Source: Tabrizicola oligotrophica (GTDB taxonomy: Bacteria > Pseudomonadota > Alphaproteobacteria > Rhodobacterales > Rhodobacteraceae). From it: a DNA stretch of 64,000 nucleotides. The notes under the pieces are model-generated. The model had not been told where the DNA came from. It saw only the letters and a list, made by a program, of their open reading frames with translations, and did no database searches. The DNA is taken from assembly GCF_011008935.1 (NCBI RefSeq), contig NZ_JAAIVJ010000005.1, positions 124,001-188,000 on the forward strand, read 5' to 3'. Made by a program: the position numbers and the translations under genes. This document shows, in pieces, positions 49,021 through 50,528 of the stretch (its first letter is position 1; the number at the start of each line of letters is the position of its first letter).

Positions 49021-49049
49021 AAAGGGCGGCTCCGAAAGGGCCGCCCTTT
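49021..49049 (+). terminator. groESL terminator
   Basis: 10-bp stem AAAGGGCGGC / GCCGCCCTTT, 9-nt loop, followed by TTCC, 22 nt after the groEL stop. Confidence 0.82.
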
Positions 49050-49129
49050 TCCATATGCCGAGGTTCACTTGGCTCTCTCCCCCTACCTTTCCGGTTGCAC
49101 GCGCTCCCCGCCGCGCTAGCCTGGGCGCC

Positions 49130-50029
49130 ATGAAAGCCGTCTTCATCGCCTCCAGCCATTCCGCCTATGACGATCGCCCGGGCGAGCTGTATCACTTCCC
49201 GAACAGGAACTACCTTTCCGTTGCTGCAAAGACGGTGGGAGATTGGGTGATCTTCTACCAAGGGCGGCGAGGAGGTATCTCTGGATACTACGCTGTCCAG
49301 CGTGTTGAGCGGATTGTCCCAGACCCGACTGATCCGTCACATAGTTACGCCATTTTGGACCGCGCGTCGCTCCTGAGCTTTGAACGCCCGGTTCCGCGCT
49401 TTCGCGCCAACAATACACCATATGAAAGGGGTCTGCCCAAGGCTCGCGGCAAGAATACCTCTTCTGTGCGGCTGATCTCCGATGCCGATTTCGCCGCCAT
49501 CATCGACGAGGGCCTTCGGGAAGACATCACCCCTGACACCCTGCCGCGCGAAGGCCCGCTGCCGCAGCCGCTCCAACCCGGCTTTGCCGAAGCCCAGACG
49601 GGCTTTGTGCCGCTTGGCAATGCCGATCGGGTGCAGATCCTCGCCTCGCGCGCTTTCCGCGACCGCGCCTTTGCCCGGCAGGTCAAGTCGGCCTATGGCG
49701 CGCGCTGTGCCATGTCGGGGCTGATGTTGCGCAACGGCGGCGGGCGGCCCGAAGTGGAAGCCGCCCATATCGTCCCGGTCGAAGCCCGCGGCCCCGACAC
49801 GGTGCGCAACGGGCTGGCGCTTTCGGGGACCGTGCATTGGATGTTCGACCGCGGGCTGGTCTCGGTGGATGACGACATGACGCTGCTCATCGCCAAGGAC
49901 AGCGTGGCCAGCGACATCGCCGCGCGGCTCTTCGTGCCGGACCGCAGGCTGATTCTGCCCGCCGATGCCGGCAAGGCCCCGCATCCGGCCTATCTCAAAT
50001 GGCACCGCGACACCTGCTTCAAGGGCTGA
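49130..50029 (+). CDS. HNH endonuclease with N-terminal PUA/EVE-like region
   Basis: 299 residues from the ATG at 49130. The C-terminal half (about 200-299) is an HNH nuclease: YGARCAMSGLML, VEAAHIVPVEARGPD, then NGLALSGTVHWMFDRGL, with the Asn and His of the beta-beta-alpha metal fold. The N-terminal part (FIASSHSAYDDRPGELYHF, VGDWVIFYQGRRGGISGYYAV) resembles the reader barrels (PUA/EVE/SRA type) of modification-dependent nucleases; this is inference. By hand count GC is 30/60 at 49201-49260 and 36/60 and 34/60 in the next two blocks, against 41/60 at 49501-49560 and 45/60 at 49741-49800, and the 5' part uses rarer codons (agg, gga, cga). The gene looks mosaic. No methylase lies beside it. 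Confidence 0.75.
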   Translation: MKAVFIASSHSAYDDRPGELYHFPNRNYLSVAAKTVGDWVIFYQGRRGGISGYYAVQRVERIVPDPTDPSHSYAILDRASLLSFERPVPRFRANNTPYERGLPKARGKNTSSVRLISDADFAAIIDEGLREDITPDTLPREGPLPQPLQPGFAEAQTGFVPLGNADRVQILASRAFRDRAFARQVKSAYGARCAMSGLMLRNGGGRPEVEAAHIVPVEARGPDTVRNGLALSGTVHWMFDRGLVSVDDDMTLLIAKDSVASDIAARLFVPDRRLILPADAGKAPHPAYLKWHRDTCFKG

Positions 50030-50033
50030 TGGC

Positions 50034-50528
50034 ATGAAAACACCCCCGCTCCCCGACCATATGCGCGCGGCCCGCGCGTCCGATCATGCGGCCATAGACG
50101 CCCTCTTGCGCGCCGCCTTTCCGACTGCGGCCGAAGCCCGGCTGGTGCAGGATCTGCGCCAGAGCGGCGAGATGGATCTGGAACTGGTGCTGCCCGACGA
50201 CGGCGGCCTTGCCGGATATCTCGCCCTCAGCCGGATGGTGGAGCCGGCGGGCTGGTTGGCGCTGGCGCCGCTGGCGATTGCGCCCGTCTGGCAGGGCAGG
50301 AGGCTTGGCCGCAGGTTGACCGCCGCCGCGCTGAAACTTGCCGCTATCAAGGGGCAGACTGTCGTCGTCCTCGGCGACCCCGCTTTCTACTCCGGCTGCG
50401 GCTTTTCCCAGCCCCGCGCCGGCCGCCTCACGTCGCACTATCCGCTCAGCCACACCCTGATCGCCGGACCGGGAGACGATGCGCCCGCCGCAATCCTGCG
50501 CTATCCGGCCGCATTCGCCGGGCTGTGA
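50034..50528 (+). CDS. GNAT family N-acetyltransferase
   Basis: 164 residues, start ATG 50034, 4 nt after the HNH stop. The acetyl-CoA loop reads VWQGRRLGRRLTAAAL (Q/RxxGxG/A). Ends in a Gly/Cys segment FYSGCGFSQP seen in YhbS-like acetyltransferases. Substrate unknown. Base composition is ordinary. Confidence 0.85.
   Translation: MKTPPLPDHMRAARASDHAAIDALLRAAFPTAAEARLVQDLRQSGEMDLELVLPDDGGLAGYLALSRMVEPAGWLALAPLAIAPVWQGRRLGRRLTAAALKLAAIKGQTVVVLGDPAFYSGCGFSQPRAGRLTSHYPLSHTLIAGPGDDAPAAILRYPAAFAGL

What the first reader, a model, noticed from the sequence alone, without database searches (positions are those of the whole stretch)
49130..50029. Mosaic HNH endonuclease with a probable modified-base reader domain
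The nuclease half is ordinary for this genome in GC and codon use, but the part encoding the first 110 residues drops to 50-60% GC (30/60, 36/60 and 34/60 in three successive 60-bp blocks, versus 41/60 and 45/60 downstream) with rarer Arg/Gly codons. Its motifs suggest a PUA/EVE/SRA-like barrel. Swapping the recognition domain is a known way for restriction enzymes to change specificity. No methylase is adjacent, as expected for a type IV enzyme. The gene sits directly after groESL, a possible exchange site.
Basis: partly seen in the sequence, partly recalled or inferred. Interest (0 to 1): 0.68.

Follow-up and report, generated by a model that had tools for sequence, protein, structure and literature searches.

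The report
EVE-HNH type IV restriction enzyme gene
This is an ordinary single-gene bacterial enzyme, widespread in alphaproteobacteria, that probably cuts foreign DNA carrying chemically altered bases; its two halves have evolved together, so it is not a recently stitched mosaic, and the odd base composition of its first half is most likely local drift.

Summary
The gene at 49130-50029 (+, 299 aa) is real, and so is the composition contrast: GC3 is 0.64 over residues 1-110, 0.87 over the nuclease half, and 0.835 (sd 0.034) in neighbouring genes. The guess at a modified-base reader is right. The model (pLDDT 87) places an EVE (PUA-superfamily) domain at 1-130 (Z 11-12 to EVE proteins) and an HNH domain at about 174-299 (Z 14 to TagI). 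The layout matches VcaM4I, the prototype EVE-HNH modification-dependent endonuclease. Catalytic residues (H213, N227, H236, D240) are invariant in 62 homologues.

Full-length homologues are abundant. In the nearest relatives both halves diverge about equally (80/83%, 82/83%, 74/76%), and N and C trees recover the same clade (Mantel r 0.83). The gene sits directly after groEL in other Rhodobacteraceae too, so its position looks inherited; one congener lacks it cleanly. Most close homologues have modest GC3 along the whole gene; only the nuclease half here has reached host-like GC3.

The target modification is unknown. The host's own plasmid carries a C5-cytosine methylase, and such methylases are not depleted in carriers, so indiscriminate 5mC cutting is unlikely. 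New member of a known kind.

The parts
49130..50029 (+). EVE-HNH endonuclease gene (299 aa), predicted orphan modification-dependent (type IV) restriction enzyme
   Evidence: ORF; Pfam HNH_2; fold; homologues
49130..49519 (+). residues 1-130: EVE (PUA-superfamily) domain, predicted modified-base reader; low-GC stretch
   Evidence: VIA-align Z 11-12 to EVE structures 1wmm/2hd9, 1zce, 2eve; weak Pfam EVE, E 0.009; invariant Y13, D15, F23, P24, Y53, G107; GC3
49520..49618 (+). residues 131-163: low-confidence linker; the equivalent VcaM4I linker (148-178) is an autoinhibitory helix
   Evidence: pLDDT 54-65 in blocks 131-160; VcaM4I linker in PMC7897488
49619..50026 (+). residues 164-299: HNH (beta-beta-alpha-Me) nuclease domain; H213, N227, H236, D240 match VcaM4I H224, N241, D250, D254
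   Evidence: Pfam HNH_2 E 5e-11; profile alignment to VcaM4I E 2.5e-9; TagI Z 14; invariant in 62
49090..49129 (+). putative own promoter with conserved CTAGCCT just upstream of the ATG, perhaps giving a leaderless transcript; downstream of a GC-rich hairpin plus T run after groEL (about 49025-49055)
   Evidence: CTAGCCT(T/G)GG within about 15 bases of the ATG in window, L031, L032, L033; no hit from the consensus scanners, so tentative

Best explanation
The gene encodes an EVE-HNH modification-dependent (type IV) restriction endonuclease. Inferred mechanism, by analogy with VcaM4I: the N-terminal EVE domain flips a modified base, most likely a modified cytosine, out of incoming DNA into its pocket. 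This relieves inhibition of a C-terminal HNH dimer, which then makes a double-strand cut nearby. It needs no partner methylase because host DNA lacks the recognised modification or context. Shown here: the two-domain architecture, the EVE and HNH folds (predicted model), intact and invariant HNH catalytic residues, the absence of an adjacent methylase, and joint inheritance of the two domains. Inferred: base flipping, the identity of the modified base, dimerisation, autoinhibition and phage restriction. The GC dip is not an imported domain: most close homologues have modest GC3 along the whole gene, and the C half of this copy has drifted to host-like GC3.
For: AlphaFold2 model of a 62-sequence alignment, pLDDT 86.8, pTM 0.82. 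Foldseek top hit VcaM4I E 7e-9, then TagI E 9e-6. VIA-align Z 14.0 to the TagI HNH domain (110 residues, 2.8 A), Z 12.1 to EVE protein PH1033 (118 residues, 2.8 A), and Z 12.5 to whole VcaM4I, where the high rmsd reflects a different or uncertain placement of the two domains. Pfam HNH_2 E 5e-11, EVE sub-threshold. Standalone EVE proteins are the N-half-only sequence matches examined. Catalytic residues aligned to VcaM4I and invariant in 62. Joint inheritance: paired identities, synonymous codon identity 0.38 vs 0.45 and 0.35 vs 0.41 for two of the three nearest relatives, Mantel r 0.83 against a permutation maximum of 0.08, and the same 10-member clade in both trees. Conserved groEL-downstream position.
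Against: The EVE domain has no significant sequence alignment with the VcaM4I EVE domain; the profile comparison aligned only the HNH half. The position I would equate with pocket residue Y130 (S/A112) is not aromatic, judged by eye, and W82 could not be placed. C5-cytosine methylases are as common in carriers (39 of 77) as in non-carriers (171 of 317), p 0.61, and this genome's own plasmid carries one in a type II system, so plain 5mC is probably not cut indiscriminately. One of the three nearest relatives (L032) shows a marginal synonymous difference between halves (p 0.04, uncorrected). No biochemical data.
Confidence: 0.85

Rival explanations
1. Recent domain swap: the recognition half was imported from an AT-richer source onto a resident nuclease.
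For: GC3 of the N half is far below neighbouring genes; N-minus-C GC3 is -0.21 here against -0.02 sd 0.06 across 86 homologues; rarer Arg/Gly codons in the N half.
Against: The N half matches its nearest relatives as well as the C half does (80/83, 82/83, 74/76%); synonymous divergence is high and similar in both halves; both trees place the gene in the same clade; the position after groEL is shared.
Confidence: 0.04
2. Small-scale recombination or gene conversion within the same family replaced the C half (not the N half) in this lineage with a GC-richer allele of the same orthologue.
For: The C half here is the one that differs from relatives in GC3 (0.87 against 0.47-0.78 in the other groEL-clade homologues); L032 and L034 show higher synonymous identity in the C half (p 0.04 and 0.003, uncorrected).
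Against: Two of the three nearest relatives show no significant difference between halves; the same clade in both trees. Drift or amelioration explains it equally well, and synonymous sites are near saturation.
Confidence: 0.12
3. The EVE domain reads a modified RNA base or has a housekeeping role, and the protein is not a phage-restriction enzyme.
For: Neighbourhoods are conserved within each clade and look like ordinary chromosomal genes, not defence islands; EVE domains can bind modified RNA (background in PMC7641849 and PMC7897488); no avoidance of C5 methylases.
Against: Patchy presence (77 of 394 family genomes), presence on plasmids and clean absence in a congener fit an accessory defence gene; the characterised relative VcaM4I acts on DNA.
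Confidence: 0.1

Closest known systems
VcaM4I (EVE-HNH modification-dependent endonuclease, Vibrio campbellii; PMC7897488, PDB 6yex)
   Same: About 300 aa, EVE domain then linker then HNH domain; HNH residues align (H224/H213, N241/N227, D250/H236, D254/D240), and both lack a metal ligand before the first His; no partner methylase
   Different: EVE domains not alignable at the sequence level; second moniker residue is the canonical His here and Asp in VcaM4I; aromatic pocket residues Y130 and W82 not identified; conserved Y13-x-D15 and F23-P24 signature in this family
TagI (SRA-HNH endonuclease, PDB 6ghs)
   Same: Closest solved HNH domain by fold (Z 14.0, 24% identity over 110 residues) and by phmmer (E 4e-5)
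Standalone EVE proteins (Pfam PF01878; PH1033, Atu2648, PSPTO5229, human THYN1)
   Same: Same fold over residues 1-130 (Z 10-12), weak but detectable sequence similarity
   Different: No nuclease domain; different conserved motif at the start of the domain (KSEP-x-x-W in the standalone proteins read, Y-x-D here)
Phosphorothioate-dependent HNH endonucleases (NCBIfam NF045808)
   Same: HNH half matches (E 8e-26)

Membership tests
EVE-HNH modification-dependent endonucleases (VcaM4I type) | N-terminal EVE/PUA-superfamily domain | tested here: met
   Z 11-12 to several EVE structures over residues 1-130; sub-threshold Pfam EVE, E 0.009; N-half-only hits examined are standalone EVE proteins
EVE-HNH modification-dependent endonucleases (VcaM4I type) | C-terminal HNH nuclease with intact catalytic residues | tested here: met
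   HNH_2 E 5e-11; H213, N227, H236, D240 aligned to VcaM4I and invariant in 62
EVE-HNH modification-dependent endonucleases (VcaM4I type) | Orphan gene without adjacent cognate methylase | tested here: met
   No methylase among neighbours in the stretch read; no recurrent partner recognised across 80 loci and none annotated next to two plasmid copies
EVE-HNH modification-dependent endonucleases (VcaM4I type) | Base pocket formed by P24, W82, Y130 with wedge Q128 | tested here: inconclusive
   No significant EVE-EVE sequence alignment; by eye S11, D15, P24 line up with T11, E15, P24, but no counterpart of Y130 or W82 could be assigned
EVE-HNH modification-dependent endonucleases (VcaM4I type) | Autoinhibitory helical linker | tested here: inconclusive
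   Residues 131-163 low confidence; helix 164-172 leads into the HNH domain
EVE-HNH modification-dependent endonucleases (VcaM4I type) | Cleavage dependent on 5mC/5hmC | not testable with these tools
   Needs biochemistry
SRA-HNH endonucleases (TagI type) | SRA reader domain | tested here: inconclusive
   EVE structures lead the list; SRA chains were not among the rows shown, which does not exclude them
Phosphorothioate-dependent restriction endonuclease NF045808 | Whole-protein score above curated cut-off | tested here: not met
   90.8 bits against 180, C half only
Recent mosaic/domain-swapped gene | Discordant divergence or phylogeny of the two halves | tested here: not met

The most novel reading that the evidence does not exclude
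A separate EVE-HNH subfamily whose base pocket differs from VcaM4I (invariant Y13-x-D15 and F23-P24, no aromatic residue assigned at the Y130 position) and which reads a modification other than plain 5mC, so that it can live stably on the chromosome alongside a plasmid-borne C5-cytosine methylase.
Probability: 0.25. Interest if true: 0.45.

Novelty: new member of a known kind. Interest (0 to 1): 0.2.

Why it matters
It adds a large alphaproteobacterial branch to a class with few characterised members (VcaM4I, TspA15I, CmeDI), and its coexistence with host C5 methylases makes its specificity a testable question. It also shows that a within-gene GC step can be misleading: here the half that looks foreign diverges just like the other half.

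Tried and rejected
Domain swap: rejected on paired identities, synonymous codons and trees. groEL-downstream exchange hotspot: homologues at 61-81% identity occupy the same site in eight fetched Rhodobacteraceae loci, with groEL identity falling in step (92, 91, 89, 88%), so inheritance with losses is simpler; a congener simply lacks the gene and the adjacent GNAT gene. A conserved partner gene was sought across 80 loci and none found beyond clade-specific chromosomal neighbours; the GNAT gene beside it recurs only in L037. Avoidance of C5 methylases: none (39/77 against 171/317, p 0.61). For genomes with two or more such methylases 17% against 26%, p 0.10, not significant. Phosphorothioate-enzyme assignment: C half only. 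Phages: only partial matches, all lacking the first 105 residues. Pocket mapping to VcaM4I by profile alignment failed for the EVE half. Pattern scanners found no promoter or terminator, although an upstream element is visibly conserved.

Full report
Observation. The gene is a 299-codon ORF at 49130-50029 (+), 131 bases after the groEL stop. The composition contrast is real. Residues 1-110 have GC3 0.636, the nuclease half 0.868, and 110-codon blocks of neighbouring genes 0.835 with sd 0.034 and minimum 0.745. Rarer Arg/Gly codons are enriched in the first half, 45% against 4% in the nuclease half and 13% in neighbouring genes.

What it is. Pfam finds HNH_2 at 193-247 (E 5e-11) and a sub-threshold EVE match at 26-125 (E 0.009). 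The N-half-only matches in relatives that I read are standalone EVE proteins. A model built on 62 homologues (pLDDT 86.8) has VcaM4I as the best Foldseek hit (E 7e-9), then TagI. VIA-align gives Z 12.1 for residues 1-129 against the EVE protein PH1033, with other EVE proteins at 11-12, and Z 14.0 for 174-299 against the TagI HNH domain. The high rmsd against whole VcaM4I means the two domains are arranged differently, or that the model's relative placement is uncertain. A profile alignment puts H213, N227, H236 and D240 on VcaM4I H224, N241, D250 and D254; of these H224, D250 and D254 were shown by mutation to be important (PMC7897488). All four are invariant in 62 homologues.

Is it a mosaic? 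No. Relatives are abundant: 259 stretches in the species-level genome set, and 77 of 394 genomes of the family, most of them full length. Pairwise identities of N and C halves run together: 80/83, 82/83, 74/76, 64/67, 62/67. At conserved residues the share of identical codons is 0.38 vs 0.45 (L031), 0.40 vs 0.54 (L032, p 0.04) and 0.35 vs 0.41 (L033). Across 86 proteins the N and C identities correlate at r 0.83 (permutation maximum 0.08), and trees of each half recover the same ten-member clade with similar branching, although support for the innermost node in the N tree is low. In most homologues of this clade GC3 is modest along the entire gene. The unusual feature here is that the C half has reached host-like GC3. 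This is best read as drift or amelioration, possibly with intra-family gene conversion of the C half; I cannot separate these.

Locus. The gene follows groEL directly in L031-L035, L037, L039 and L040 (Tabrizicola MAG, Leisingera, Roseobacter and others), usually followed further on by an EamA-type transporter, a lipase-like gene and purK/purE (the gene names of these neighbours rest on my reading of the translations). The congener G001 goes from groEL straight to the next shared gene, lacking both this gene and the neighbouring GNAT gene. Other clades hold homologues at their own conserved chromosomal sites and on plasmids. A CTAGCCT element just upstream of the ATG is conserved in the four nearest sequences, suggesting its own promoter; the simple scanner did not report it.

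Mechanism. By analogy with VcaM4I, which flips 5mC/5hmC into an EVE pocket and is autoinhibited by its linker (PMC7897488), I infer sensing of a modified base followed by HNH cleavage. The EVE-HNH architecture was already listed as a class of putative type IV enzymes in the EVE census (PMC7641849). The exact base is open. The EVE half does not align by sequence with VcaM4I, and pocket residues cannot be matched confidently. Host biology is a constraint: contig C25 of this genome appears to be a circular plasmid (127-base terminal overlap) that encodes a C5-cytosine methylase next to an MvaI/BcnI-family nuclease, and in 394 genomes C5 methylases are not rarer in carriers. If that methylase is active, the enzyme must ignore its motif, prefer another modification, or be weakly active; VcaM4I and TspA15I are themselves only moderately specific.

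Verdict. A new member of a known kind.

Noticed in passing
L158 (G000:C25, 18,699 bases; not in the window): Apparent circular mobilisable plasmid (127-base terminal overlap) with RepA-type initiator, ParA-like ATPase, MobA/MobL relaxase, TraG-type coupling protein, a C5-cytosine methylase spanning the contig ends, an MvaI/BcnI-family nuclease, and an adjacent SIR2 plus HerA pair resembling a known defence system.
   Followed up: partly
window 50034-50528 (+): GNAT acetyltransferase gene 4 bases after the EVE-HNH stop; absent together with it in congener G001, and a 43%-identical GNAT follows the EVE-HNH gene in L037. Possibly an accidental neighbour.
   Followed up: partly
window 49110-49130: CTAGCCT element conserved about 7-8 bases before the start codon in four homologues, as expected for a promoter giving a leaderless or nearly leaderless transcript.
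   Followed up: partly
L153 (G000:C14:50530-51027): Second C5-methylase-like match (109.8 bits, positions 4-166 of 324) in a 510-aa ORF with a PCQPFSAAGKR motif, possibly in a mobile region judging from neighbouring ORFs.
   Followed up: no
G000:C3:425860-426258 (L159): The genome also carries a standard standalone EVE protein (Pfam EVE, E 5.5e-45), separate from the EVE-HNH gene.
   Followed up: no
G307:C5:5394-6395: In one relative the EVE and HNH parts are reported as two adjacent matches (query 2-165 and 143-294) a few bases apart with the same open-frame length, possibly just an insertion in the linker.
   Followed up: no
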